Positions 9,355 through 47,777 of a stretch of 64,000 bases of DNA are shown in pieces. Source of the DNA: Lutimonas saemankumensis (GTDB taxonomy: Bacteria > Bacteroidota > Bacteroidia > Flavobacteriales > Flavobacteriaceae); the NCBI RefSeq assembly GCF_020171465.1, contig NZ_JAIUZR010000001.1:1-64000 (forward strand). The letters run 5' to 3'. A model generated the notes under the pieces. That model was not told the origin of the DNA and did no database searches. It saw only the letters and a program-made list of their open reading frames with translations. The number at the start of each line of letters is the position of its first letter. Within the stretch, counting starts at the first letter, position 1. A program made the translations under genes and the position numbers.

Positions 9355-10557
9355 TTGAATTTTCCTTTGTACATAGCAAAACGTTACTTAAGGTCGAAAA
9401 GCAGCAACAACGCCATCAATATTATCACTCTTATTGCTACTTTAGGGGTTATTGTCAGCGCCATTGCATTATTTATCGTCTTATCCGTTTTTTCGGGATT
9501 GAAGGATTTCAGCCTGAGTTTTATCAGAACCGCTGATCCGGACCTGAAGATCACCACCGCAGAGGGCAAGTCGTTCTATTTTGATCAGGATCTTGAAAAA
9601 AAGCTTATGGGTGATAAAATCAAAGCCTACACAAGGGTTATTGAAGAACGTGTATTTCTGAGCTACGGTGAAAAATCCCATATTGCAAGTATAAAAGGAG
9701 TTGATTCAAATTACCTCAATGTAAACCGGCTGGATACAGCCGTCTATTTTGGAAACTGGGTCAATTATGACGCCAAGTATACCGTAGTGGTTGGTAGTGC
9801 AATTTCTTCTTCGTTGTCTATTGGCACGTATGATTTTTTGGACTATTTAAAGATTTACGTTCCAAAACCGGGCAAGGGATACATAACAAATCCAAAAACG
9901 GCATTTAATCAGGTTGCAGCCCAAACCATTGGGATCTATCGTCTTACGGATGACATTGATAAGAAATTTGTTTACAGTAATTTGGTACTTGCCCAGGATC
10001 TGTTGAATTACGAAGAAAATCAGGTATCGGCTGTAGAAATTAAAGTGGCTGAAGGGTTTGATTCAAGGGAGGTGCAGCATGAACTGAAGCAAAGTCTTGG
10101 AAGCGATTATAAGATAAGGACAAGGCAGCAGCTTAATTCTGTTTTCTATAAAATGCTCAATACGGAAAATCTGGTTTCTTACCTGGTATTCACCCTAATT
10201 CTTGTCATTGCCCTGTTTAATGTGATCGGGGCAATAGTGATGATGATCATTGACAAAAGAGAGAATTTAAAAACGCTTTTTCATCTGGGAGCAACGGTTA
10301 GGGAAATCAGAAGGGTATTTGTTTTACAGGGCTTTCTATTGACTTTGTTCGGTTTGTCCGTGGGCCTTTTTCTGGCAATTCCTTTTGTGTTGCTTCAAAA
10401 GAAATATGGATTTATCATGATCACTCAATCCCTGGCTTATCCGGTGGAGTTCCGGCTAACTAATGTGCTTGTTGTTGTTTTAACCATAGTTGTTCTGGGC
10501 TATCTGGCTTCAAAAATCGCGAGTGCCCGGATATCCAGAAAGCTTGTTGCGGACTAA
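9355..10557 (+). CDS. ABC transporter permease of the LolC/LolE type
   Basis: A 400-residue inner-membrane protein with an N-terminal helix, a large periplasmic MacB-like domain (about residues 50-250) and three C-terminal helices forming the FtsX core (about 275-395). It resembles the permeases that release lipoproteins to the outer membrane; the ATPase partner is not next to it. The start is TTG, giving the family-typical MNFPLYIAKRYLRSKSSNNAIN; no ATG gives this N-terminus. It is two bases downstream of rbfA, so co-transcribed. A general FtsX-like permease of another function remains possible. Confidence 0.87.
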   Translation: MNFPLYIAKRYLRSKSSNNAINIITLIATLGVIVSAIALFIVLSVFSGLKDFSLSFIRTADPDLKITTAEGKSFYFDQDLEKKLMGDKIKAYTRVIEERVFLSYGEKSHIASIKGVDSNYLNVNRLDTAVYFGNWVNYDAKYTVVVGSAISSSLSIGTYDFLDYLKIYVPKPGKGYITNPKTAFNQVAAQTIGIYRLTDDIDKKFVYSNLVLAQDLLNYEENQVSAVEIKVAEGFDSREVQHELKQSLGSDYKIRTRQQLNSVFYKMLNTENLVSYLVFTLILVIALFNVIGAIVMMIIDKRENLKTLFHLGATVREIRRVFVLQGFLLTLFGLSVGLFLAIPFVLLQKKYGFIMITQSLAYPVEFRLTNVLVVVLTIVVLGYLASKIASARISRKLVAD

Positions 10558-10573
10558 TAGAACAGCGAATAAA

Positions 10574-11554
10574 TTAATCTCCGAATTTGTCCAGAACTTC
10601 GTCGAAAACCTGAAAAACTTCTTCCTTGGTATCAGAGGTCACCATACGAAGCCTGTATTCTTTGAAGTGAGGAATCCCTTTGAAATAATTGGTATAATGT
10701 CTGCGGGTTTCAAAAAGTCCGGCCCTTTCCCCATTCCAGCCAATAGCCATTTCAAGATGTCGTTTTGCAGTTTTGGTCCTCTCTCGGATTCCGGGAGATT
10801 CAAGATGCTTACCCGTGCTGAAATAATGCTTTACCTGATTAAAGAACCACGGGTTGCCTATGCTTGCCCTTCCAATCATAGCGCCATCCAATCCGAATTT
10901 ATCTCTCATTAACATTGCTTTTTCAGGGGAGTCAACGTCGCCATTGCCAAATACGGGAATATGCATTCTTTGATTGTTTTTCACATCTGCAATTGGTTCC
11001 CAGTTTGCCACACCTTTATACATCTGGGCTCTTGTCCTTCCATGGATGGCTATGGCCTGTATTCCCACATCCTGCAATCTTTCTGCTACATCCTGAATGT
11101 AAATTGAATCATGATCCCAGCCTAAACGCGTTTTAACCGTAACAGGCAGATGTGTATGTTTTACCATGGCCTCACTTAATTTGACCATTAGTGGAATGTC
11201 TTTAAGGATCCCGGCACCAGCTCCTTTACTCACCACCTTTTTCACGGGGCAGCCAAAATTAATATCGATAAAATCAGGGTTCGATCTTTCAACGATCTCA
11301 ACCGTTTTGAGCATCGAGTCCAGGTTAGCGCCGAATATCTGAATTCCAACGGGTCGTTCCTTGTCGTAGATGTCAAGTTTCTGAACGCTCTTGGCGGCGT
11401 CTCGGATCAATCCTTCGGAAGATATGAATTCTGTATATACAACATCAGCACCATTTTCCTTACACAAGGCACGAAATGGCGGGTCACTCACATCCTCCAT
11501 AGGAGCGAGCAATAAAGGAAAATCTCCAAGATCTATGTTACCTATTTTTGCCAA
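10574..11554 (-). CDS. dusB: tRNA-dihydrouridine synthase
   Basis: A 326-residue FMN enzyme that reduces uridines in tRNA D-loops. Visible motifs: LLLAPMEDVSDPPFR at the start of the barrel, the catalytic Cys near residue 103 in NFGCPVKKV followed by GAGAGIL, then VKTRLGWD, and IHGRTRAQMYKG for flavin and substrate binding. The subtype (DusB-like) follows from overall similarity and is less certain than the family. It is convergent with the LolE-like gene, 16 bases apart. Confidence 0.93.
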   Translation of the reverse strand: MAKIGNIDLGDFPLLLAPMEDVSDPPFRALCKENGADVVYTEFISSEGLIRDAAKSVQKLDIYDKERPVGIQIFGANLDSMLKTVEIVERSNPDFIDINFGCPVKKVVSKGAGAGILKDIPLMVKLSEAMVKHTHLPVTVKTRLGWDHDSIYIQDVAERLQDVGIQAIAIHGRTRAQMYKGVANWEPIADVKNNQRMHIPVFGNGDVDSPEKAMLMRDKFGLDGAMIGRASIGNPWFFNQVKHYFSTGKHLESPGIRERTKTAKRHLEMAIGWNGERAGLFETRRHYTNYFKGIPHFKEYRLRMVTSDTKEEVFQVFDEVLDKFGD

Positions 11555-11571
11555 ACCTTCTGTTTTGGCTG

Positions 11572-11579
11572 CAAAATTA
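11572..11579 (-). promoter_or_regulatory. Bacteroidota -7 box (TAATTTTG) for dus
   Basis: On the minus strand the bases read TAATTTTG, 17 bases before the dus ATG. No clear TTTG lies at the -33 position. Confidence 0.45.
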
Positions 11580-11685
11580 CATAAATTTTAAACATTAAAT
11601 TTCATGCGAAAAGCGGTTTAAAATGATTTTTAGTTTGAGCAATGAATCCACCTGGTTTTATAGGCCTGTATAATTGCAAAAAGTG

Positions 11686-35236: not shown

Positions 35237-35563
35237 ATGGCTTTAGAAGGAAAACATATGTTTGGTGCAATTGGTGATACTCGGGTCACCTTTGTCGAGA
35301 AAAAAATTGACCAGGATCGAATGGAATTTTTGAAGAAACTTCTTGAAGTTAATGATTTCGAGGTCCTAGTTCAAGAAGAAAAACGAAAAAGTGAAGAGGA
35401 ACCACAGCTTTACACCATCGGAGTTACTGATATGGTATTTAACCCTACTGTATATGTTTTTCAAAGGCGTTTAAAAACACTTGATGGAAACCATATTGTG
35501 AATCAGGAATACTGGAATCAATTATCTGAGGATACCAAGCCGCAGTACTGGAAAAATTCTTGA
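35237..35563 (+). CDS. Small protein of unknown function at the end of the nuo operon
   Basis: A 108-residue soluble protein with mixed strands and helices, no cysteines, no signal peptide and no membrane helix. The N-terminal half is basic and acidic in alternation (RVTFVEKKIDQDRMEFLKK). The second half has DMVFNPTVYVFQRRLKT and ends in KPQYWKNS. I recognise no family. It starts four bases after the nuoN stop, so it is translated from the complex I transcript. An accessory or assembly role for the complex is possible by position only. Confidence 0.7.
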   Translation: MALEGKHMFGAIGDTRVTFVEKKIDQDRMEFLKKLLEVNDFEVLVQEEKRKSEEEPQLYTIGVTDMVFNPTVYVFQRRLKTLDGNHIVNQEYWNQLSEDTKPQYWKNS

Positions 35564-35738: not shown

Positions 35739-35774
35739 GTTATACCGTTGTTTATCAGTGGTATAACTTTTTTT
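35739..35774 (+). terminator. Terminator-like hairpin just ahead of the glycogen operon
   Basis: GTTATACC and GGTATAAC form an 8-bp stem around a 13-base loop, followed by seven T. It ends only about 15 bases before the glgA N-half ATG. It may end read-through from nuo, or act as a leader hairpin controlling the glg operon. No TAnnTTTG promoter was found between it and the gene. Confidence 0.6.
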
Positions 35775-35788
35775 GTCAGTTAATTATT

Positions 35789-36592
35789 ATGGAAATTCTA
35801 CACGTAAGCGCCGAGTGTTTCCCTGTAGCCAAGGTTGGTGGGTTAGCAGATGTCCTGGGGGCATTGCCAAAATATCAGAATAAAAATGGTGTTGACTCAA
35901 AGGTAATTATGCCATTTTATGACAATGAGTTTAAAGATTCAAATGATTTCAATTCAATATTTCAGGCTCATTTGAAGCTTGGAAAGCTGCATTATGACTT
36001 TGAGATTTTAACCCCTGTTGAACCATTGGATTTTCCGGTTTTTCTGGTTGATATCCATGGGTTGTTTGACAGGCCTAAAGTGTATTCCTATGAAGATGAC
36101 GTGGAACGTTTTCTTGCTTTCCAACTTGCTGTTCTGGAATGGGTGCTCAGTCTTGAAGAGAAACCAGACATCATTCATGCCCATGACCATCAGACCGGTT
36201 TTTTGGCTTTTTTAATGTCCCATGGCAGAGCATATAAGTCATTAAAGGAAATTCCAACTGTTTTTACCATTCACAATGCCCAATATCAGGGTCAGTTTGG
36301 CTATGATAAATTGAGGTATTTTCCTGAATTTGACCTGAAGAAGATGGGTATAATTGACTGGGATGGTTCCATAAACCCTTTGGCCACAGCCATAAAATGT
36401 TCCTGGAGGGTAACCACTGTTTCGAAAGGATATCTCGAGGAATTAAAATCAAATGCGAATGGTCTGGAAAAACTTATAAGCGATGAGAGTGAAAAGTTTT
36501 CCGGGATCCTCAATGGTATCGACACAGAGCTTTGGAACCCTGAACTGGATTCCAACCTGGTGAAAAATTATTCAATAAAAGCCACAAAATAA
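35789..36592 (+). CDS. glgA: Glycogen synthase GT5, N-terminal domain only (split gene)
   Basis: A 267-residue protein equal to the N-terminal Rossmann domain of a GT5 ADP-glucose glycogen synthase. It starts MEILHVSAECFPVAKVGGLADV, with the KxGG ADP-glucose motif near residue 15, continues through DIIHAHDHQTGFL and FTIHNAQYQG, and stops just after the motif GILNGIDTELWNP, where the interdomain linker of normal GlgA lies. The C-terminal domain is encoded separately at 37794-38447. Together the parts total 484 residues, close to normal GlgA. Its stop overlaps the next ATG (TAATG). Not a decayed gene by appearance: open frame, clean ends, motifs intact. Whether the halves assemble into an active enzyme is unknown. 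Confidence 0.88.
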   Translation: MEILHVSAECFPVAKVGGLADVLGALPKYQNKNGVDSKVIMPFYDNEFKDSNDFNSIFQAHLKLGKLHYDFEILTPVEPLDFPVFLVDIHGLFDRPKVYSYEDDVERFLAFQLAVLEWVLSLEEKPDIIHAHDHQTGFLAFLMSHGRAYKSLKEIPTVFTIHNAQYQGQFGYDKLRYFPEFDLKKMGIIDWDGSINPLATAIKCSWRVTTVSKGYLEELKSNANGLEKLISDESEKFSGILNGIDTELWNPELDSNLVKNYSIKATK

Positions 36593-37794
36593 TGAAAGCA
36601 CTTTTTTTTACAAGAGAATTTCCACCATATGTTTACGGCGGAGCCGGAGTTCATGTTGAATACCTAGCGGGAGAACTGGCAAAATTGATGGAGATGGATG
36701 TGCGATGTTTTGGGGATCAGGATGAGAAGGATGGAAATTTATCTGTTAAAGGTTTCCCTTATGACAATGTGGTTTTTGACGGATCCAATGATAAACTGAA
36801 AGCGGTTTTTAAAACATTGAGTACCTGCATACATATGAATGCCGAAGAGATCGATGCGGATGTAGTTCATTGTCACACCTGGTATGCACAGTTTGCCGGT
36901 ATTGTGGCCAAACTCTGTTATGGAATACCTCTTGTTATAACAACACATTCTCTCGAACCCCTGAGGCCATGGAAAAGGGAACAGTTGGGGCGAGGTTATG
37001 ACGCCTCTTCATGGGTTGAAAAAACGGCTATTGAAATGGCCGATGCCATAATCGCTGTTTCAGAAGAAACCAAGGTGGATGTTTTAAAGAATTTTAATGT
37101 AGATCCGGATAAAGTTAAGGTTATTTACAATGGGATTAATCTTCAGGAATATGTAGTTACCCAAACGGATAAGACCTTGGTGAAATATGGAGTTGATACA
37201 AGTAAACCATTTGTGTTGTTCGTGGGTCGGATTACCAGGCAAAAAGGGATTATCCATCTGGTCAATGCCATTAAATATATTGATCCTGATACTCAGGTGG
37301 TATTATGTGCCGGGGCCCCGGATACGCCAGAGATCGCAAAGGAAATGGAGGATAGTGTAAACGAGGTTAAAAGAGAAAGGGATAATGTCATCTGGATCGA
37401 TGTCATGTTGGAAAAAGAGGAGGTCATTGAATTGTATTCTCATGCAGATGTGTTTTGCTGCCCTTCAATTTATGAGCCTTTTGGAATTATTAATATTGAG
37501 GCTATGGCATGTGAAACAGCTGTTGTAGCAAGTGCGGTAGGAGGAATTAAGGAGGTAGTTGTTGATGGGGAAACTGGTATATTGGTTTCTTTAGAGCAAC
37601 AGGATGTGGCGCCTTTTGAACCGGTTGATCCGGATAAGTTTTCAAGAGATATGGCGGCTGGAATCAACAAACTGATCAATGATAAGGAGCTGGCCAGGGA
37701 TATGGCCCTTAAGGGAAGAAAGAGAGTGGAAGATTATTTTGACTGGATCGCTATTGCAAAACAAGTGGAAGGATTGTACAAATCATTACTGTAA
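36592..37794 (+). CDS. glgM: GT4 glycogen/maltose-1-phosphate synthase (Corynebacterium-type GlgA, GlgM)
   Basis: A complete 400-residue GT-B glycosyltransferase of family GT4. It starts MKALFFTREFPPYVYGGAGVHV, the signature of the actinobacterial-type glycogen synthase. The C-terminal domain has GRITRQKGIIHL for phosphate binding and the EPFGIINIE segment (E-x7-E). Characterised relatives join ADP-glucose and glucose-1-phosphate to make maltose-1-phosphate, the donor for GlgE. GlgE and a maltokinase downstream favour that role over direct chain extension. The gene lies exactly between the two halves of glgA, overlapping each by one base (TAATG on both sides). Confidence 0.88.
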   Translation: MKALFFTREFPPYVYGGAGVHVEYLAGELAKLMEMDVRCFGDQDEKDGNLSVKGFPYDNVVFDGSNDKLKAVFKTLSTCIHMNAEEIDADVVHCHTWYAQFAGIVAKLCYGIPLVITTHSLEPLRPWKREQLGRGYDASSWVEKTAIEMADAIIAVSEETKVDVLKNFNVDPDKVKVIYNGINLQEYVVTQTDKTLVKYGVDTSKPFVLFVGRITRQKGIIHLVNAIKYIDPDTQVVLCAGAPDTPEIAKEMEDSVNEVKRERDNVIWIDVMLEKEEVIELYSHADVFCCPSIYEPFGIINIEAMACETAVVASAVGGIKEVVVDGETGILVSLEQQDVAPFEPVDPDKFSRDMAAGINKLINDKELARDMALKGRKRVEDYFDWIAIAKQVEGLYKSLL

Positions 37795-38447
37795 TGAAGG
37801 ATAAGCCACTGAGCTCATCTGTTGTTGGAACTGATCTCACATCAGGGAAGGAGGTAAATAAGGTTGACTTATGCAGGAGGTTTTCTCTGGACCCTAAAAA
37901 ACCATTGTTTTCGTTTATCGGACGGCTGGTGGTTGAAAAGGGGGCTGATTTACTGCCGGGAATTGTGTACAAAGCTTTGCTCCGGAAGGATATAAGCATT
38001 TTAATCTTAGGTGAGGGAAAAGCAGAAATCTCCGCCGAATTAAGTTCATTGACTGTTCATTTTAAATCAGATTTAGCTTGTATTACAGGTTTTGATGAGG
38101 TTCTTGCGCATCAAATATATGCAGGGTCCGATTTTCTTTTAATGCCTTCAAGAACAGAACCCTGCGGTTTGAATCAAATGTACGCCATGAGATATGGTAC
38201 CATACCCATTGTGAGAAGAACAGGAGGACTGAACGATACAGTAAAGGATATTGGAGACGATGGTTTTGGAATATGTCATGTTCAGGCTTCTGTCAAAGAT
38301 GTAACGGATTCAATTTACAGAGCCATAGAATTGTATGTAAACAAGAAAAAACTGCTTGAAATAAGAAAAAAATGTATGCGAATTGATCATTCATGGAATA
38401 ATTCAGCGCTAGAATATTTAAATTTATACAAATCTTTAACCCATTAA
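37794..38447 (+). CDS. glgA: Glycogen synthase GT5, C-terminal domain only (split gene)
   Basis: A 217-residue protein matching the C-terminal GT-B domain of GT5 GlgA. It has KKPLFSFIGRLVVEKGADLL with the Arg and Lys that bind the ADP phosphates, SRTEPCGLNQMYAMRYG with the conserved Glu, and the family-typical VRRTGGLNDTV. The first 15 or so residues (MKDKPLSSSVVGTDL) do not look like GlgA, whose linker seems to resume at SGKEVNKVDLCRRF. The ATG overlaps the stop of the GT4 gene, so translation depends on the upstream gene. It lacks the N-terminal acceptor domain and is probably inactive without the product of 35789-36592. Confidence 0.88.
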   Translation: MKDKPLSSSVVGTDLTSGKEVNKVDLCRRFSLDPKKPLFSFIGRLVVEKGADLLPGIVYKALLRKDISILILGEGKAEISAELSSLTVHFKSDLACITGFDEVLAHQIYAGSDFLLMPSRTEPCGLNQMYAMRYGTIPIVRRTGGLNDTVKDIGDDGFGICHVQASVKDVTDSIYRAIELYVNKKKLLEIRKKCMRIDHSWNNSALEYLNLYKSLTH

Positions 38448-38449
38448 AT

Positions 38450-39715
38450 ATGTTCACTAAAAAAGTTTTAGGAATTATCCTCGGAGGAGGACAGGGATCT
38501 CGACTTTACCCCCTTACAGAAAGTCGTTCAAAACCTGCTGTACCGATAGCGGGTAAATACAGATTGGTCGATATTCCAATTTCGAATTGTATCAACTCAG
38601 AGATCAAACGAATGTATGTGTTGACACAGTTTAATTCTGCCTCCCTCAACAGACATATAAAGAATACCTATCATTTTAGTTTTTTCAGCCAGGCATTTGT
38701 GGATGTTCTGGCCGCTGAACAAACCCCTATGAGCGATACCTGGTTTCAGGGTACCGCGGATGCCGTCAGGCAAAGTATGCATCATTTCCTAAGACATGAA
38801 TTTGAATATGCTTTGATTTTATCAGGAGACCAGTTGTATCAGATGGATTATAACCTGATGGTGGAGCAACACATAAAAAGTAAAGCGAAGATTTCAATAG
38901 CTACAATTCCTGTAAATGCAAAAGAGGCCACTTCGTTCGGGATTCTTAAATCTGATGAAAAAAACAAAATAACCTCTTTTATTGAAAAACCCGATTCAAG
39001 TTTACTTCCAGACTGGACTTCGGAGGTTAGTGACGATATGAAGGCAGCCGGACGTAATTATCTCGCATCCATGGGAATCTACATCTTTAACAGGGATTTA
39101 CTGATCGAGTTGATGAATGATCCCGACACCAACGATTTTGGAAAAGAAATTATTCCACAGTCCATCGATAAGCACAAGGTGGTCAGCTATCAATACGAAG
39201 GGTACTGGACCGATATAGGAAATATAGATTCCTTTTTTGAAGCAAATCTGGGATTGACGGATGATATTCCAGCCTTTGATCTTTACGATCGAAACAAACG
39301 AATCTATACCAGAGCAAGAATGCTTCCCACTTCAAAAATTTCAGGAACGACTTTGAACAGGAGCGTAATTGGAGAGGGATGTATCGTCCATGCTGCAAAA
39401 ATTGACAGGTCGGTCATTGGAATACGTTCCAGAATTGGAAACGAATCCACCGTGATCAACACCTACATGATGGGTAATGACTGGTATGAGACCCTGGATG
39501 ATATTGAAAAGAAAAAAACCCAGATTTTGATGGGTATTGGAGAACGATGTTTTATAAAGAATGCAATTATTGACAAAAATTGTCGTATCGGAGATGATGT
39601 GAGGATTAATGGAGGGCCTCATCAAAAAGACAGAGAAACTGAAACGTACTGTGTTAAAGATGGAATTGTCGTAATAAAGAAAGGAGCTGTCATTGAAAAA
39701 GGATATGTAATTTAG
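38450..39715 (+). CDS. glgC: Glucose-1-phosphate adenylyltransferase
   Basis: A 421-residue enzyme that makes ADP-glucose from glucose-1-phosphate and ATP. The N-terminal nucleotidyltransferase domain has GIILGGGQGSRLYPLTESR and KPAVPIAGKYRLVDIPISN; SGDQLYQMDY holds the catalytic Asp. The C-terminal part is a left-handed beta-helix, typical of the allosteric enzyme. It starts two bases after the glgA C-half and supplies the donor for both synthases in this operon. Confidence 0.96.
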   Translation: MFTKKVLGIILGGGQGSRLYPLTESRSKPAVPIAGKYRLVDIPISNCINSEIKRMYVLTQFNSASLNRHIKNTYHFSFFSQAFVDVLAAEQTPMSDTWFQGTADAVRQSMHHFLRHEFEYALILSGDQLYQMDYNLMVEQHIKSKAKISIATIPVNAKEATSFGILKSDEKNKITSFIEKPDSSLLPDWTSEVSDDMKAAGRNYLASMGIYIFNRDLLIELMNDPDTNDFGKEIIPQSIDKHKVVSYQYEGYWTDIGNIDSFFEANLGLTDDIPAFDLYDRNKRIYTRARMLPTSKISGTTLNRSVIGEGCIVHAAKIDRSVIGIRSRIGNESTVINTYMMGNDWYETLDDIEKKKTQILMGIGERCFIKNAIIDKNCRIGDDVRINGGPHQKDRETETYCVKDGIVVIKKGAVIEKGYVI

Positions 39716-39725
39716 AATTATTGAC

Positions 39726-41663
39726 ATGCAAAAGCAGCAAAGAGTAGTAATTGACCGTGTGTCTCCTCAAATTAACGGTGGAGCTTATTACATAAAAAGA
39801 GTTGTGGGCCAGTTGGTGCATGTTTCGGCAGATGTGCTTGCTGACGGACATGATGTACTGGGGGTTTCCATACTTTACAAGCATCAAGGTGACAGAAGGT
39901 GGAAAGAGGCAAGGATGCATCCCGGACATAATGATGAATGGTTTGGTTCCTTCAAAGTTGAGAAACAAGGCTATTATTCCTACAAAATTGAAGGCTGGGT
40001 AGATTACGCCCTAAACTGGCAACATGGGATCAGCAGAAAGATTCAAGACGGGCAGCATGTAAGTTCAGAGTTATCTGAAGGGATCCTTTATCTCAAAGAG
40101 GTTGTAAAAAAGTCGAATGCTGATGAAAAGAAGTATCTAAGGGGTCTTATTTCATTGTTTGGTAACGAAAGCGATTATAAAGAAGCCATTATAGAATCTG
40201 AATCGAAAAGGCTCAAAGAAATTTTCGAAAAGTATCCGGCAAAAATATTGGTAAATTCCTCTGAGGAACTCCCTGTTTATGTGGATCGGAAAAAAGCGCT
40301 GTTTAGTACCTGGTACGAATTCTTCCCAAGATCTTCCTCAAAAGAAGAGAACAGGCATGGAACCTTCAAGGAATGTATTCCGCTGCTTGGCAGGGTAGCT
40401 GAGATGGGTTTTGACACCCTTTATTTCCCTCCCATTCATCCCATAGGGGAAGTCAATCGGAAGGGAAAAAATAATACAACCGATGCCTTGGAAGGAGATG
40501 TAGGGTCTTGTTGGGGAATTGGTTCCAAATTTGGAGGTCATAAGGATATTCACCCGGAGTTGGGGAGTGTGGATGATTTTAAGGAATTAATCAAGGAAGC
40601 AGATGCACTTGGAGTTGAAATTGCGATGGACTATGCGCTGCAGGCTGCCCCTGATCATCCTTGGGTTAAGGATCATCCATCCTGGTTCAAATGGAGGCCT
40701 GACGGAACTGTTCAATATGCTGAGAACCCCCCAAAGAAGTATCAGGACATACTGCCTATTTATTTTGAATCTGACGACTTTAAAGGATTGTGGAAGGAGT
40801 GCCTGGATATTTTATTTTACTGGATCGATTGCGGTATAAAAATATTCAGGGTTGACAATCCGCATACCAAACCGTTTTATTTTTGGAACTGGATCATTAA
40901 TGAGGTCAAAAAAAAATATCCCGATGTTATTTTTCTCGCTGAAGCCTTTACAAGGCCTAAAATAATGCAGCAACTGGCTAAGCAGGGCTATTCCCAATCG
41001 TATACCTATTTTACCTGGCGTGACAATAAGCATGAATTGATCAGCTATCTTGAAGAACTGACCAAGACGGAACAAAGGGAATATATGAGGCCTAATTTCT
41101 GGCCCAACACCCCGGATATTAATCCTTATCATTTACAGGGAGCCAATGAGTCCAAACATATTCAGCGCTATGTCCTTGCGGCAACTTTGAGCTCTAATTT
41201 AGGGATTTACGGACCGGTTTTTGAACAAATGATCAGTGCACCTTTACCCGGTAGAGAGGAATATTTGGACTCTGAGAAATTTCAAGTCCAGCATTATGAC
41301 TGGTCAGTTGAAAACTGGTTGATAAAACTTATATCAGGGATCAACCAGGCCAGAAAAGACCACGAGGCGCTGCAACAAACAAATAATATTAAATTCTGTC
41401 ATATTGATAATGATCAAATAATTGCCTTTTACAAATGGAACGATGAGAGAACCAGTGAGGTATTTGTTGTGGTCAGTTTAGATCATCATCACGCCCAGCG
41501 GGGAACGGTTCAACTTCCGACCCAGGACCTTGGAATTGGCCATGATCAGGATTTGCAGATCAGAGATATTGTACCAGATGTAAGCTATACATGGAAAGGA
41601 GAATGGAATTTTGTTGAATTACATCCAAACATGCCTTTTCATATTTTTGAAATAATTAAGTAA
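39726..41663 (+). CDS. glgE: Alpha-1,4-glucan:maltose-1-phosphate maltosyltransferase
   Basis: A 645-residue GH13_3 enzyme that transfers maltose from maltose-1-phosphate to the growing alpha-glucan. An N-terminal beta-sandwich domain (about residues 1-115) is followed by a helical region and the TIM barrel. The barrel's nucleophile Asp is in FRVDNPHTKPFYFWNW and the acid/base Glu in IFLAEAFTRPKIM. Length and motifs are those of GlgE rather than an ordinary amylase. It lies between glgC and the maltokinase, nine bases after glgC. Confidence 0.95.
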   Translation: MQKQQRVVIDRVSPQINGGAYYIKRVVGQLVHVSADVLADGHDVLGVSILYKHQGDRRWKEARMHPGHNDEWFGSFKVEKQGYYSYKIEGWVDYALNWQHGISRKIQDGQHVSSELSEGILYLKEVVKKSNADEKKYLRGLISLFGNESDYKEAIIESESKRLKEIFEKYPAKILVNSSEELPVYVDRKKALFSTWYEFFPRSSSKEENRHGTFKECIPLLGRVAEMGFDTLYFPPIHPIGEVNRKGKNNTTDALEGDVGSCWGIGSKFGGHKDIHPELGSVDDFKELIKEADALGVEIAMDYALQAAPDHPWVKDHPSWFKWRPDGTVQYAENPPKKYQDILPIYFESDDFKGLWKECLDILFYWIDCGIKIFRVDNPHTKPFYFWNWIINEVKKKYPDVIFLAEAFTRPKIMQQLAKQGYSQSYTYFTWRDNKHELISYLEELTKTEQREYMRPNFWPNTPDINPYHLQGANESKHIQRYVLAATLSSNLGIYGPVFEQMISAPLPGREEYLDSEKFQVQHYDWSVENWLIKLISGINQARKDHEALQQTNNIKFCHIDNDQIIAFYKWNDERTSEVFVVVSLDHHHAQRGTVQLPTQDLGIGHDQDLQIRDIVPDVSYTWKGEWNFVELHPNMPFHIFEIIK

Positions 41664-43299: not shown

Positions 43300-45210
43300 A
43301 TGGCAGAAGTAATAAATCATAGTCTTTTTACCGAATTTGACATCAATTTATTTAAATCAGGAAAGCATTATCGACTTTATGAAAAGTTTGGTTCGCATCC
43401 AATTACTGTTGACGGAGTTTCAGGAACTTATTTTGCGGTTTGGGCCCCTTCGGCAGAATCGGTATCGGTGATCGGAGATTTTAACTTCTGGAACGAAAAA
43501 CAGCACAGGCTTAATGTGCGCTGGGACGGATCAGGTGTATGGGAAGGATTTATACCCGAGGCAAAAGAAGGTATGCGGTATAAATATAAAATCAAGTCGC
43601 ATCATAACAATATAGTGACCGAGAAAGCGGATCCTTACGCTTTTTCCTATGAAAAACCACCTAATACGGCATCCATTATAACCAGTATTGACGGCTACAA
43701 ATGGAAGGATAAGGACTGGATGGGCTACAGAAAGGAAAAAAATGGCCTAGACAAGCCCTATGCAGTATACGAAGTCCATTTGGGATCCTGGATGAGAAAT
43801 GCTTCGGATAATACTTTTTTTAGTTATGATCAATTTGCCGATAAACTGGTGGATTATTTAAAGAAAATGAATTTTACCCATGTGGAATTTATGCCGATCA
43901 TGGAATATCCTTTTGATCCCTCCTGGGGGTATCAGCTCATAGGATACTATGCACCAACATCCAGATTCGGGTCAGCCAAGGATTTCATGAAATTATGCGA
44001 TCGTTTACATCAAAATGATATAGGGGTCATACTGGACTGGGTTCCATCTCATTTTCCTTCAGATGATCACGGGCTTGGCTTTTTTGACGGAAGTCATTTG
44101 TATGAACACCCAGATCCAAGAAAAGGATATCATCAGGACTGGAAAAGTCTGATCTTTAATTACGGCAGAAATGAAGTGAAATCATTTTTGATAAGTAATG
44201 CGTTTTACTGGCTTGATAAATATCATGTTGACGGACTCAGAGTTGATGCGGTTGCTTCCATGCTGTATCTTGATTATTCACGTGAAGACGGGGAATGGGA
44301 GCCGAATATCTATGGAGGCAGGGAGAATCTTGAGGCAATTGATTTTCTGAAAGAATTTAACAGAGAGGTCTACTCGAATTTTGATGGCATTCAAACCATT
44401 GCAGAAGAGTCCACGGCATTTACGGGAGTTACCAATGATGTTGAATTTGGAGGGCTGGGTTTTGGTATGAAATGGATGATGGGATGGATGCATGATACGC
44501 TGGAGTATTTTGGAAGAGACCCTATTTACAGAAAGCATCATCAAAATGAAATTACCTTTAGTCTTGCGTATGCTTTTTCAGAAAAATTCATGCTTCCCTT
44601 ATCCCATGATGAGGTGGTCTACGGAAAAAATTCACTTTTAGGAAGAATGCCAGGCGATGAATGGCAACGTTTTGCGAATTTAAGACTACTTTATGCTTAT
44701 ATGTATACGCATCCAGGTACGAAATTGATTTTCCAGGGTGGAGAATTTGGTCAGTCCGAAGAGTGGAATTTCTCTCAAAGTCTGGATTGGCATTTACTGG
44801 AATACAAGCCCCATAAAGGGCTTCAGTCATTTGTGAAGGATCTGAATACATTTTATAAAAATACTCCTGCGCTTTATGAAAAGGCGTTTTCAGGTGAAGG
44901 ATTTGAATGGATCAATTACAAGGACCATGAAAATTCTGTTATTTCCTATATCAGGAAAGGCCATGATGAGAAGAATGATATCATCGTGCTTTGTAATTTT
45001 ACCTCCGTGATTCGAAAAAACTATGAAATAGGCCTGCCAAGAAAAGGGAAATTAAAACAAGTTCTCAACAGCGACTTTAAGAAATATTTTGGTAGTGGAG
45101 TAAGTAACTCCAAAGCGATCGAAATTAAGAAATCTTCGAGGGATGGAAGGCCATTTTCCGCAGCTGTAACGCTTCCTCCGTTGAGTTTAGTGGCTTTTGA
45201 GATAAAATAG
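43300..45210 (+). CDS. glgB: 1,4-alpha-glucan branching enzyme
   Basis: A 636-residue GH13 enzyme that introduces alpha-1,6 branches. The N-terminal CBM48 domain (GTYFAVWAPSAESVSVIGDFNFW) is about residues 40-140. In the catalytic barrel YEVHLGSW opens the domain. The nucleophile Asp is in GLRVDAVASMLYLDY, the acid Glu in TIAEESTAFTGV, and the transition-state His-Asp in LPLSHDEVVYGK. Length is normal. It is the last gene of the glg operon. Confidence 0.96.
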   Translation: MAEVINHSLFTEFDINLFKSGKHYRLYEKFGSHPITVDGVSGTYFAVWAPSAESVSVIGDFNFWNEKQHRLNVRWDGSGVWEGFIPEAKEGMRYKYKIKSHHNNIVTEKADPYAFSYEKPPNTASIITSIDGYKWKDKDWMGYRKEKNGLDKPYAVYEVHLGSWMRNASDNTFFSYDQFADKLVDYLKKMNFTHVEFMPIMEYPFDPSWGYQLIGYYAPTSRFGSAKDFMKLCDRLHQNDIGVILDWVPSHFPSDDHGLGFFDGSHLYEHPDPRKGYHQDWKSLIFNYGRNEVKSFLISNAFYWLDKYHVDGLRVDAVASMLYLDYSREDGEWEPNIYGGRENLEAIDFLKEFNREVYSNFDGIQTIAEESTAFTGVTNDVEFGGLGFGMKWMMGWMHDTLEYFGRDPIYRKHHQNEITFSLAYAFSEKFMLPLSHDEVVYGKNSLLGRMPGDEWQRFANLRLLYAYMYTHPGTKLIFQGGEFGQSEEWNFSQSLDWHLLEYKPHKGLQSFVKDLNTFYKNTPALYEKAFSGEGFEWINYKDHENSVISYIRKGHDEKNDIIVLCNFTSVIRKNYEIGLPRKGKLKQVLNSDFKKYFGSGVSNSKAIEIKKSSRDGRPFSAAVTLPPLSLVAFEIK

Positions 45211-45371: not shown

Positions 45372-47777
45372 ATGATTTTAAATACAGAGCTGGAACACAA
45401 AGGGAATTTGTTTCCTTCCAAAGTAGTATCCTATAGAAAAGATGTAGATACTTTTTATTTTACCACTGATAACTATGTGGTTTTACAAGTAACCGTGAGA
45501 CGTGACAGTGTGATTCGTTTCAGATATAGTACGAAGACAATTTTTGACAATGATTTTTCGTATGCCATTACCAAATATGCCAGTGAAGGATACAATCACC
45601 TTGAACTGACTGAGGATGAAACGCATTATATCATTACCACTGCAAAATTGATATGTAAGATTTCAAAGACGGACCTTAGAAAGTCCATTTACGATGCGAA
45701 GGATGATAAATTAATTTGTGAAGATGAGCTTGGATTTCACTGGGAGGAAAGCTACGAATTTGGAGGCGATATTGTAAAGATGTCAAAAGTTTCTCAGGAC
45801 AGTGAAGCTTTTTACGGACTTGGAGATAAACCGGTACATATCAATTTAAAAGGCAAGAGGTTTGAGAACTGGGTAACTGATTCTTACGCTTACGGAAGGG
45901 ATACCGATCCAATTTATAAAACCATTCCTTTTTACGTTGGGCTTCACCATGAGAAGGCCTATGGAATATTTTTTGATAACACCTTCCGGTCTTATTTTGA
46001 TTTTTGCAGCGAAAGAAGAAATATTACAAGTTTCTGGGCCGAAGGTGGTGAAATGAATTATTATTTTATTTATGGACCTGCCATGACAGATGTGGTTGCT
46101 TCCTATACCGATCTTACGGGAAAACCTCATGAATTGCCCCCTTTATGGGCACTGGGCTACCATCAATGTAAATGGAGCTATTACCCGGAGTCAAATGTAA
46201 GAGCCATAACGAGCAAGTTTCGCGAATTGGAAATTCCATGCGATGCTATTTATCTCGATATCGATTATATGGATGGATTCAGATGTTTCACCTGGAATAA
46301 AGAACATTTTCCTGACCCGAAAAAGATGGTTAAAGACTTTGAAAAAGAAGGCTTTAAAACCATTGCCATAATTGATCCAGGTATTAAAATCGATATGAAT
46401 TATTCGGTTTTTCGTGAAGCTCTTGAGAAGGATTATTTTTGTAAAAGGGCAGACGGACCTTATATGAAAGGAAAAGTATGGCCGGGAGAATGTTTCTTCC
46501 CTGACTTTACCGATCCAGAGGTTCGTGACTGGTGGTCAGGACTCTACAAGGAACTAATTGAAGAAATCGGTGTAAAAGGAGTCTGGAATGATATGAACGA
46601 GCCAGCCGTAATGGAAGTTCCCGGGAAAACCTTTCCGAATGATGTAAGACATAACTATGATGGAAACAGGTGTAGTCACAGAAAGGCTCATAATATCTAT
46701 GGTATGCAAATGGCCAGGGCCACCTATCAAGGCTTAAAAAAGTTTTCTTATCCAAAGCGTCCCTTTGTGATTACCAGGGCGGCTTATTCAGGAACACAGC
46801 GTTATACTTCTACCTGGACAGGTGATAATGTTGCTACCTGGGACCATTTGAACATTGCCAATATACAGGCTCAAAGGCTTAGTATGTCAGGGTTTTCGTT
46901 TGTTGGATCAGATATTGGCGGTTTTGCCGAACAACCTAACGGAGAACTTTATGCAAGATGGATCCAGCTTGGAATGTTTCATCCTTTTTTCAGAACACAT
47001 TCTTCAGGTGATCATGGAGATCAGGAGCCTTGGGCGTTTGGATCAAACATTACGGATATCGTCCGTAAATTTATTGAGATCAGGTATCAGTTGCTTCCTT
47101 ATTTATATACTGCCTTCTGGAGATATGCTGAAGAAGGTATTCCCATTTTAAAGTCTCTTGTGTTGTTCGATCAGGAAGACCAGCATACGCATTACAGGAA
47201 CGATGAATTTATTTTTGGAGAAAAAATACTTGCCTGCCCTATAGCAGAACCAAATGCCAAGGGGAGAAGGATGTTCATTCCTCGCGGAGACTGGTATAAT
47301 TTCTGGGATAATGAAGTTTGGAAAGGAGGAGAAGAAGTCTGGGTGGATGCAGATTTGGATTCCATGCCGATATTTGTAAAAGCAGGAGCCATTATTCCGA
47401 AATACCCTGTTCAGCAATATGTAGGTGAAAAAGAGATCAAAGAGCTGGAGCTGGATGTGTATTATAAGGAGGGTAAGGAAACCTCACAGGTTTATGAAGA
47501 TGCCCATGATGGTTATGACTATAAAAAAGGAAGGTTTAGTTTAAGAGATTTTAAGTTGATTGGTAAAAAGAAGTCGCTTACCATCCAGCAGTTTAAGGCC
47601 GGTAAGTATATTACCCCGTATGAAACCTTTAAAATAAATATTAAGGGACTTCCTTTTAAAATTACCAAAATTGATATTGACCATGATCTCCTCGATTTGA
47701 AAAAGGTGAAAGTCAATGGCGATAACTCCTTTGTGATTGAAAAAGAATTCAACAGGCTGCATATTACAGGAAAATAA
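45372..47777 (+). CDS. Glycoside hydrolase family 31 alpha-glucosidase
   Basis: An 801-residue protein with no signal peptide, probably cytoplasmic. A beta-sandwich N-terminal domain (about residues 1-240) precedes the GH31 barrel. The nucleophile is the Asp in GVWNDMNEPAVM (about residue 414) and the acid/base the Asp in TSTWTGDNVATWDHL. GH31 enzymes release glucose from the non-reducing ends of maltose or short alpha-glucans; xylosidase specificity is possible but less likely beside glycogen genes. It lies 160 bases after glgB. A likely role is turnover of maltose and short glucans. Confidence 0.92.
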   Translation: MILNTELEHKGNLFPSKVVSYRKDVDTFYFTTDNYVVLQVTVRRDSVIRFRYSTKTIFDNDFSYAITKYASEGYNHLELTEDETHYIITTAKLICKISKTDLRKSIYDAKDDKLICEDELGFHWEESYEFGGDIVKMSKVSQDSEAFYGLGDKPVHINLKGKRFENWVTDSYAYGRDTDPIYKTIPFYVGLHHEKAYGIFFDNTFRSYFDFCSERRNITSFWAEGGEMNYYFIYGPAMTDVVASYTDLTGKPHELPPLWALGYHQCKWSYYPESNVRAITSKFRELEIPCDAIYLDIDYMDGFRCFTWNKEHFPDPKKMVKDFEKEGFKTIAIIDPGIKIDMNYSVFREALEKDYFCKRADGPYMKGKVWPGECFFPDFTDPEVRDWWSGLYKELIEEIGVKGVWNDMNEPAVMEVPGKTFPNDVRHNYDGNRCSHRKAHNIYGMQMARATYQGLKKFSYPKRPFVITRAAYSGTQRYTSTWTGDNVATWDHLNIANIQAQRLSMSGFSFVGSDIGGFAEQPNGELYARWIQLGMFHPFFRTHSSGDHGDQEPWAFGSNITDIVRKFIEIRYQLLPYLYTAFWRYAEEGIPILKSLVLFDQEDQHTHYRNDEFIFGEKILACPIAEPNAKGRRMFIPRGDWYNFWDNEVWKGGEEVWVDADLDSMPIFVKAGAIIPKYPVQQYVGEKEIKELELDVYYKEGKETSQVYEDAHDGYDYKKGRFSLRDFKLIGKKKSLTIQQFKAGKYITPYETFKINIKGLPFKITKIDIDHDLLDLKKVKVNGDNSFVIEKEFNRLHITGK

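What the first reader, a model, noticed from the sequence alone, without database searches (positions are those of the whole stretch)
35789..38447. Glycogen synthase GlgA split in two, with a complete GT4 synthase gene nested between the halves
Seen: the gene at 35789-36592 encodes only the N-terminal GT5 domain (KVGGLADV to GILNGIDTELWNP). The gene at 37794-38447 encodes only the C-terminal GT5 domain (GRLVVEKGADLL, EPCGLNQ, VRRTGGLNDTV). An intact GT4 glycogen/maltose-1-phosphate synthase gene sits exactly in the linker, joined by TAATG overlaps on both sides. Together the halves are 484 residues, a normal GlgA length, and keep the catalytic residues. Known: GT-B enzymes have two Rossmann domains joined by a linker and normally need both in one chain. 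Inferred: the halves either reassemble into a two-chain synthase, perhaps with GlgM, or one half has gained a separate role. Translation coupling would fix the ratio of all three proteins. I know of no described glycogen synthase of this form.
Basis: partly seen in the sequence, partly recalled or inferred. Interest (0 to 1): 0.87.

Follow-up and report, generated by a model that had tools for sequence, protein, structure and literature searches.

The report
Glycogen synthase split around another enzyme
In one small group of bacteria the gene for the glycogen-making enzyme GlgA has been cut between its two domains by a second, related enzyme gene, and both pieces have been kept by natural selection, so the enzyme probably works as two separate chains that come back together.

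Summary
Window 35789-38447 holds the N-domain of a GT5 glycogen synthase (267 aa), a complete GT4 GlgM (400 aa) and the GT5 C-domain (217 aa), joined by TAATG overlaps. The same order is complete in 6 of 22 genus-level genomes; a seventh (G312) shows the GlgM/C-half part. One is the isolate Lutimonas halocynthiae. Relatives carry fused GlgA or GlgM before glgC instead. Split genomes form one clade, and each half is monophyletic. In close pairs dN/dS is about 0.05 (N) and 0.09-0.13 (C). Donor-site residues are divided 3:5 between the halves, all present. Each half is predicted to fold as one GT-B domain. Best explanation: a two-chain GlgA assembled from co-expressed halves, beside the GlgM-GlgE route. 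Assembly and activity are inferred, not shown. Split GT-B enzymes are known (Alg13/14, EpsE/F; PMC8993221). I found no report of a split glycogen synthase (capped listings, open-licence papers only).

The parts
35739..35774 (+). terminator-like stem-loop (12 pairs, 5-nt loop) with T-run, about 15 nt before the N-half start codon; leader or attenuator, or end of the upstream nuo operon
   Evidence: 88.7% of 71 cells paired in 6 genomes, 4 pairs with a change on both sides; by eye weaker in G305. In the window alone the number of such sites (2) is no more than in shuffles (mean 2.3)
35789..36592 (+). glgA N-half: acceptor-side domain of GT5 glycogen synthase, 267 aa
   Evidence: (PF08323 E 9.2e-64; TIGR02095 positions 1-270)
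36590..36594 (+). TAATG joint, N-half stop overlapping GlgM start
36592..37794 (+). glgM: complete GT4 alpha-maltose-1-phosphate synthase by sequence (TIGR02149), 400 aa
   Evidence: (6tvp E 6.8e-109)
37792..37796 (+). TAATG joint, GlgM stop overlapping C-half start
37794..38447 (+). glgA C-half: donor-binding domain of GT5 glycogen synthase with its C-terminal helix, 217 aa
   Evidence: (TIGR02095 positions 272-477, E 7e-62)
38450..39715 (+). glgC: ADP-glucose pyrophosphorylase, 421 aa (makes the donor used by both GlgA and GlgM)
39726..41663 (+). glgE: maltosyltransferase, 645 aa
41667..43295 (+). maltokinase-like protein, 542 aa
   Evidence: TIGR02457, 354 bits, under its cut-off of 375; no Pfam match
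43300..45210 (+). branching enzyme (glgB)-like, 636 aa
   Evidence: CBM48 and alpha-amylase domains; the GlgB_N model is under its cut-off
45372..47777 (+). GH31 alpha-glucosidase-like, 801 aa

Best explanation
A GT5 glycogen synthase (GlgA) was cut once, in the ancestor of one Lutimonas subclade, by a glgM gene landing between its two domains. (Shown: one clade, the site of the cut, domain completeness, selection on both parts. That glgM was the incomer is inferred.) The two pieces are translated as separate chains from what looks like one operon and (inferred) dock through the usual GT-B domain interface and the C-terminal crossover helix. This rebuilds the ADP-glucose site, to which N-half residues (H162, V211, N242) and C-half residues (R44, K49, E122, G125, L126) both contribute. 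The result would be a two-chain ADP-glucose:glucan synthase made beside GlgC, GlgM, GlgE, a maltokinase and a branching enzyme. The cell then holds both the GlgC-GlgA and the GlgC-GlgM-GlgE routes, which elsewhere in the family are alternatives. GlgM is most likely an independent enzyme, not a subunit.
For: (1) Same N-half/GlgM/C-half order in 6 of 22 genus-level genomes (G000, G025, G300, G253, G303, G305); G312 shows GlgM/C-half, its contig starting inside GlgM. No genome has one half alone apart from G312, whose upstream part is not assembled. (2) Split genomes form one clade: Nuo tree, bootstrap 99, 5 split of 13 rows; NuoL tree 100/100, 6 split rows, with G304 and G317, where neither enzyme was found, also inside. 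Halves are monophyletic at 100/99 (6 N) and 99/98 (7 C). (3) Close-trio dN/dS: N 0.046-0.053, C 0.090-0.126. (4) Columns at least 98% conserved in 44 fused GlgAs: N-halves keep 60-63 of 64, C-halves 57-60 of 60; five fused controls keep 59-64 and 57-60. (5) All 8 donor-site residues listed in PMC7137382 are present, 3 in N and 5 in C. (6) The cut lies in the linker: the halves map to adjoining profile positions, and each is predicted as a whole domain (pLDDT 85.7 and 84.6) matching known starch/glycogen synthases. (7) The least confident parts of the lone models include the donor loop 12-22, the EPCGLNQ and TGG segments and the C-terminal helix, which in known structures face the other domain; they are 83-95% identical among split genomes. 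(8) No other intact GlgA in the genome. (9) A lone GlgA C-domain folds (2bfw).
Against: No interaction, expression or activity is shown; no two-chain model could be run. The C-half changes faster relative to GlgC than fused C-domains (3.0-4.1 in 11 deeper pairs and 1.69 in one, against 1.3-2.9 in 10 fused pairs); its dS in the close trio is also lower (0.38-0.53) than that of its neighbours (0.71-1.42), which I cannot explain and which raises its ratio. The three nearest genomes share changes at three otherwise conserved C-half columns. Three C-half segments are less identical among split genomes than among the more divergent genus fused GlgAs: EPCGLNQMYA stretch 0.94 against 1.00, GRLVxEKG stretch 0.89 against 0.96, GKxxNK 0.72 against 0.81. 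The panel was chosen by two motifs (GGLADV, PCGLNQ), so those columns are conserved in it by construction. GlgM between the halves is not where one would put it to help them meet. G308, which falls with the split clade in the GlgM and GlgC trees, lacks both halves, so they can be done without when GlgM is present. In Chlamydiae that acquired GlgE, the GlgC-GlgA route became impaired (PMC7935935, passages), which is a precedent for decay.
Confidence: 0.7

Rival explanations
1. The halves are kept but no longer make a synthase: each, or one, has a separate role such as binding glucan (N-half) or ADP-glucose (C-half) to regulate GlgM, GlgC or GlgE.
For: A stand-alone GT5 N-domain-like protein exists in the same genome beside panC, and PMC11046441 (passage read) notes that Bacteroidetes keep a GlgA-GT5 fragment, so lone GT5 pieces can persist. 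The C-half changes faster than fused C-domains, and three of its segments are somewhat less conserved.
Against: The panC-side protein has lost the KVGGLADV donor loop, whereas the N-halves keep it; residues needed only when both domains meet are kept on both sides. In GlgM loci of the genus with both flanks readable, both halves are present (6 genomes) or neither (5: G299, G306, G310, G311, G313).
Confidence: 0.15
2. All three proteins form one complex: GlgM sits with or between the halves, coupling maltose-1-phosphate making with chain elongation.
For: Nested order and overlapping or near-abutting joints; shared donor ADP-glucose (PMC7137382, passages).
Against: GlgM of the split clade shows no clade-specific fixed change against 23 other GlgMs, and 46 of the 296 family genomes outside this genus have GlgM with no GlgA match at the limits used.
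Confidence: 0.1
3. glgA was inactivated by the glgM insertion and the pieces are decaying remnants or mere translation spacers.
For: Insertion into a gene normally destroys it; G308 may have lost both pieces; a GlgA was impaired in Chlamydiae with GlgE (PMC7935935, passages).
Against: No internal stop in 6 N-halves and 7 C-halves, whose synonymous sites are largely saturated between the deeper lineages; dN/dS about 0.05 and 0.1 in close pairs; conserved columns kept as in fused controls.
Confidence: 0.04
4. Assembly or sequencing artefact.
For: None found.
Against: Same structure in separate assemblies, including the named isolate L. halocynthiae CECT 8444, a single-contig genome (G025) and metagenome bins.
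Confidence: 0.01

Closest known systems
Bacterial glycogen synthase GlgA (GT5, TIGR02095; E. coli 2qzs, A. tumefaciens 1rzu)
   Same: Both domains, donor-site residues, C-terminal helix, position before glgC
   Different: Two chains from two genes, cut in the linker, with another gene between
Alg13/Alg14 and EpsE/EpsF two-chain GT-B enzymes
   Same: N (acceptor) and C (donor) GT-B domains in separate proteins; for Alg13/14 the interaction is required for activity (PMC8993221, passages)
   Different: Lipid-linked acceptors and GT1/GT28-type family; inverting mechanism is recalled; no gene between the halves is mentioned in the passages read
GlgM (GT4 alpha-maltose-1-phosphate synthase, 6tvp)
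   Same: The nested gene matches over its whole length
   Different: In the GlgM-type loci inspected here it stands alone before glgC
Lone GT5 fragment of Bacteroidota (panC-side protein)
   Same: N-domain only, PF08323
   Different: 23% identical over 189 columns, donor loop lost, no C-half found beside it
GlgA-GlgB fusion of Waddliaceae/Criblamydiaceae (PMC7935935, passages)
   Same: Rearranged glgA in lineages with the GlgE route
   Different: A fusion, not a split; glgC lost there, kept here

Membership tests
GlgA (GT5 glycogen synthase) | N- and C-domain sequence of TIGR02095 | tested here: met
   positions 1-270 (231 bits) and 272-477 (210 bits); each half alone is below the whole-protein cut-off of 328 bits
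GlgA (GT5 glycogen synthase) | Donor-site residues H161, V211, N246, R300, K305, E377, G380, L381 (E. coli numbering, PMC7137382) | tested here: met
   all present, 3 in the N-half and 5 in the C-half
GlgA (GT5 glycogen synthase) | Both domains in one chain | tested here: not met
GlgA (GT5 glycogen synthase) | ADP-glucose:glucan transfer | not testable with these tools
   needs an assay
Two-chain GT-B (Alg13/14, EpsE/F) | Acceptor and donor domains encoded by separate genes | tested here: met
   (here one gene apart)
Two-chain GT-B (Alg13/14, EpsE/F) | Chains must associate for activity | not testable with these tools
   no two-chain model or assay available
Two-chain GT-B (Alg13/14, EpsE/F) | Sequence family GT1/GT28-like | tested here: not met
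   the halves match GT5 models (PF08323, TIGR02095)
GlgM (GT4, TIGR02149) | Full-length profile match over cut-off | tested here: met
   543 bits over 302, positions 1-390 of 391; the profile itself is still named glycogen synthase
GlgM (GT4, TIGR02149) | Maltose-1-phosphate synthase rather than glycogen synthase activity | tested here: inconclusive
   only context: glgE and a maltokinase-like gene follow
Pseudogene | Relaxed selection or disrupted frames | tested here: not met
   the C-half is mildly faster than fused C-domains

The most novel reading that the evidence does not exclude
The three chains form one synthase particle in which GlgA-N and GlgA-C assemble on, or exchange domains with, the GlgM dimer. 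One complex would then direct ADP-glucose either into maltose-1-phosphate for GlgE or straight onto the glucan chain.
Probability: 0.1. Interest if true: 0.9.

Novelty: new variant of a known kind. Interest (0 to 1): 0.74.

Why it matters
It would be the first two-chain member of the ADP-glucose glycogen/starch synthases that I could find, made by evolution at the joint where the two domains open and close. That gives a natural tool for asking whether GT-B catalysis needs a covalent hinge, and how an insertion that should kill a gene can instead be fixed in a clade.

Tried and rejected
Artefact: rejected by separate genomes. Decay: disfavoured by dN/dS, open frames and column conservation. Duplicated stretch at the cut (the halves overlap by about 14 residues in pairwise hits): the multiple alignment shows the N-half ending near NYSxKT and C-half homology starting near TSGK, so the overlap is mostly a new C-half leader. 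Frameshift or read-through making one N-GlgM-C chain: not tested; thought unlikely since the joints differ between genomes. GlgM adapted to the halves: no clade-specific change found. A short GlgA C-domain outside the genus: none among the 51 other matches in 299 family genomes (open frames 468 aa or more) or the 43 other matches in 395 class genomes (417 aa or more, 4 rows listing one stop inside). Both are samples; the genus search covered the 22 genomes held. G315 shows a 223-aa C piece, but it runs into a contig end and its other contig holds N plus part of C, so I count it as fused and cut.

Rows left out or trimmed: N-half starts of G253 and G303 and the GlgC start of G253 were moved to the codon matching G000; G303 has no full GlgC, and G312 has no N-half and no full GlgM. 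One search asked for 7 extra fused loci and 4 passed the filter. One search used 13 of 22 genus genomes, and one search used 16 of 17 NuoL loci (G300 left out, interrupted frame). One search took the 44 fused GlgAs that passed length and motif filters among the loci. In the genus, 4 of 22 genomes (G302, G304, G314, G317; 61-90% complete) had neither enzyme as GlgM, split or fused GlgA. TreS was sought and none of 7 matches passed its cut-off. A wider search for nested or split genes found no paper.
Full report
What is there. The window carries a gene row downstream of a nuo cluster (NADH dehydrogenase genes): [glgA N-half 35789-36592] [glgM 36592-37794] [glgA C-half 37794-38447] glgC, glgE, a maltokinase-like gene, a glgB-like gene and a GH31 gene. 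The N-half covers positions 1-270 and the C-half 272-477 of the 477-position GlgA profile TIGR02095; the middle gene is a full TIGR02149 match, closest in the PDB to M. smegmatis GlgM 6tvp. Each joint in this genome is TAATG. The only other separate GT5-domain protein found in the 3.58 Mb genome is a 269-aa protein beside panC, 23% identical, without the KVGGLADV loop.

Is it real and old. A scan of genome contigs gave 80 loci, the best 80 of a capped list. In 4 of them the C-half is a separate gene next to GlgM; in the other 76 it lies in one frame with N-domain sequence, two of these visibly cut by a contig end. In 299 family genomes, 54 have the C-domain, and only the 3 of this genus are short (open frames 221-234 aa; the other 51 are 468 aa or more). 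In 395 class genomes, 44 have it and only this one is short. In the genus (22 genomes), N-half/GlgM/C-half is complete in G000, G025, G300, G253, G303 and G305. G312 has GlgM/C-half on a contig that begins inside GlgM. Six genomes have GlgM before glgC without halves (G299, G306, G308, G310, G311, G313). Six have fused GlgA (G301, G307, G309, G310, G315, G316; G315 cut by contig ends).

One neighbourhood, two alternatives, one merger. The 108-aa gene that follows the nuo genes lies directly before the glg genes in 4 split genomes (in G253 one ORF intervenes; G300's row is elsewhere), in 5 of 6 GlgM-type contigs (G308's is too short) and in 3 of 6 fused-type contigs; G307 and G309 have another gene there, and G310's GlgA contig is cut. 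After glgC, all 6 fused-type genomes go straight to glgB. GlgM-type genomes have glgE, and the maltokinase in 2 of the 4 contigs that run past glgE. Split genomes have glgE, and the maltokinase in 4 (G000, G025, G253, G305); G300 has a short glgE and no maltokinase, and the G303 and G312 contigs end before it. Across 299 family genomes 54 have GlgA and 49 GlgM, and the overlap is exactly the three split genomes. Leaving out these three, zero overlap of 51 and 46 in 296 has hypergeometric P = 7e-5. That figure ignores shared ancestry, and the two searches used different E-value limits (1e-20, 1e-60). G310, an incomplete bin, has GlgM and fused GlgA on separate contigs, each with its own glgC.

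History. Nuo and NuoL trees make the split genomes one clade (99; 100/100), and both halves are monophyletic: one origin. In the GlgC tree, split-type GlgC and G308 lie with the genus's fused-type GlgC (98/96), away from the other GlgM-type genomes of the genus. I read this as glgM, and glgE with the maltokinase, having entered a glgA-type locus; the roots of these trees are midpoints, so it is an inference. In the GlgM tree the split genomes plus G308 are one side of a branch (94/91), but the split genomes alone are not: G308 falls among them with modest support (89/81). G308 has neither half. Its spacer before glgC keeps ten bases (cccattaaat) identical to the end of the C-half region in G000, G025 and G300 and unlike the other GlgM-type spacers. 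This suggests, weakly, that both halves were lost together; alternatively G308 is a sister lineage. Its contig gives only 136 bases before glgM, in which I see no N-half (by eye).

Selection. In the close trio, dN/dS (Nei-Gojobori, own script) is 0.046-0.053 (N), 0.090-0.126 (C), 0.013-0.020 (GlgM) and 0.010-0.019 (GlgC). Deeper pairs are mostly saturated at synonymous sites. Against GlgC, N-halves evolve at the pace of fused N-domains (dN ratio 2.4-3.2 in deeper pairs; fused 2.2-3.2). C-halves are faster (3.0-4.1, once 1.69; fused 1.3-2.9). In the close trio both ratios are higher (3.3-6.7) but rest on very few GlgC changes. Of columns at least 98% conserved in 44 fused GlgAs, N-halves keep 60-63 of 64 and C-halves 57-60 of 60, as fused controls do (59-64; 57-60). 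The one recurrent N-half departure, HDHH to HDHQ in 5 of 6, is also found in plant starch synthase IV and A. tumefaciens GlgA (alignments).

How it most likely works. The residues reported to contact ADP-glucose in bacterial glycogen synthases (PMC7137382, passages) are divided 3:5 between the halves, all present. PMC6086201 (passages) describes the inter-domain linker, the C-terminal crossover helix to the N-domain, and ribose contacts from an N-domain lysine and aspartate, which correspond to K15 and D21 here by my reading of the alignment. The cut falls in that linker, and the C-half keeps the C-terminal helix. Lone AlphaFold2 models give complete domains (pLDDT 85.7 and 84.6) whose weak spots are the donor loop 12-22 and the tail of the N-half, and the leader, the EPCGLNQ and TGG segments and the C-terminal helix of the C-half. 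Foldseek places them on known starch/glycogen synthases. The segments that would meet the partner are 81-96% identical among split genomes, against 77% (N) and 71% (C) for the rest, except the GKxxNK stretch at the cut (72%). Against genus fused GlgAs, which are more divergent overall, most are as well kept or better, but EPCGLNQMYA (0.94 against 1.00), HNAQYQG (0.96 against 1.00), GRLVxEKG (0.89 against 0.96) and GKxxNK (0.72 against 0.81) are somewhat less. I infer docking and activity; neither is shown. GlgM itself carries no split-specific fixed change against 23 other GlgMs, so I treat it as a neighbour, not a subunit.

What is known. Two-chain GT-B enzymes exist: Alg13/Alg14 and EpsE/EpsF (PMC8993221, passages). 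Chem. Rev. 2024 (PMC11046441, passages; 300,000 of 445,374 characters held) has no 'split' or 'interdomain' in the held text and mentions that Bacteroidetes keep a GlgA-GT5 fragment, which I take to be the panC-side protein. PMC7935935 (passages) describes a GlgA-GlgB fusion, not a split, in Chlamydiae with the GlgE route. Searches for split or two-part glycogen synthases and for Lutimonas glycogen listed no report by title or start of abstract. The listings were capped at 15 of 570 and 12 of 267 papers, and only open-licence papers are held. Hence: new variant of a known kind.

Noticed in passing
window 35739-35774: Terminator-like stem-loop with T-run about 15 nt before the N-half start; 4 of 12 pairs have double-sided changes among 6 split genomes, by eye weaker in G305. 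It seems too close to the start codon for a promoter in between, so it may attenuate the glg genes.
   Followed up: partly
L165 (G308) 1-200 and 1340-1392: GlgM-glgC locus without either GlgA half, but with a split-like GlgC and a ten-base match to the C-half tail in the spacer: possible joint loss of both halves.
   Followed up: partly
L161 (G300) 10248-11666: In this bin the glgE frame is short (472 aa, matching only residues 1-434), no maltokinase follows, and the glg genes are not beside nuo; error or real erosion not decided.
   Followed up: no
L168 and L174 (G310): GlgM-glgC and fused glgA-glgC-glgB on separate contigs of one incomplete bin: either both loci in one genome or mixed strains.
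   Followed up: no
L002 1405-2214 (G000 contig C4): Stand-alone GT5-like protein of 269 aa beside panC without the donor loop; a lone GT5 fragment of unknown role.
   Followed up: partly
window 35237-35563: 108-aa protein between nuo and glg genes, found at that place in GlgM-type, fused and split genomes, with no Pfam match.
   Followed up: no
window 37794-38447: In the close trio the C-half has lower synonymous divergence (dS 0.38-0.53) than the N-half, GlgM and GlgC beside it (0.71-1.42); cause unknown.
   Followed up: no
L008, L009, L012, L052: Some Flavobacterium loci have fused glgA-glgC-glgE (with maltokinase in 3 of the 4) and no GlgM on the locus, so GlgE can accompany GlgA too.
   Followed up: no
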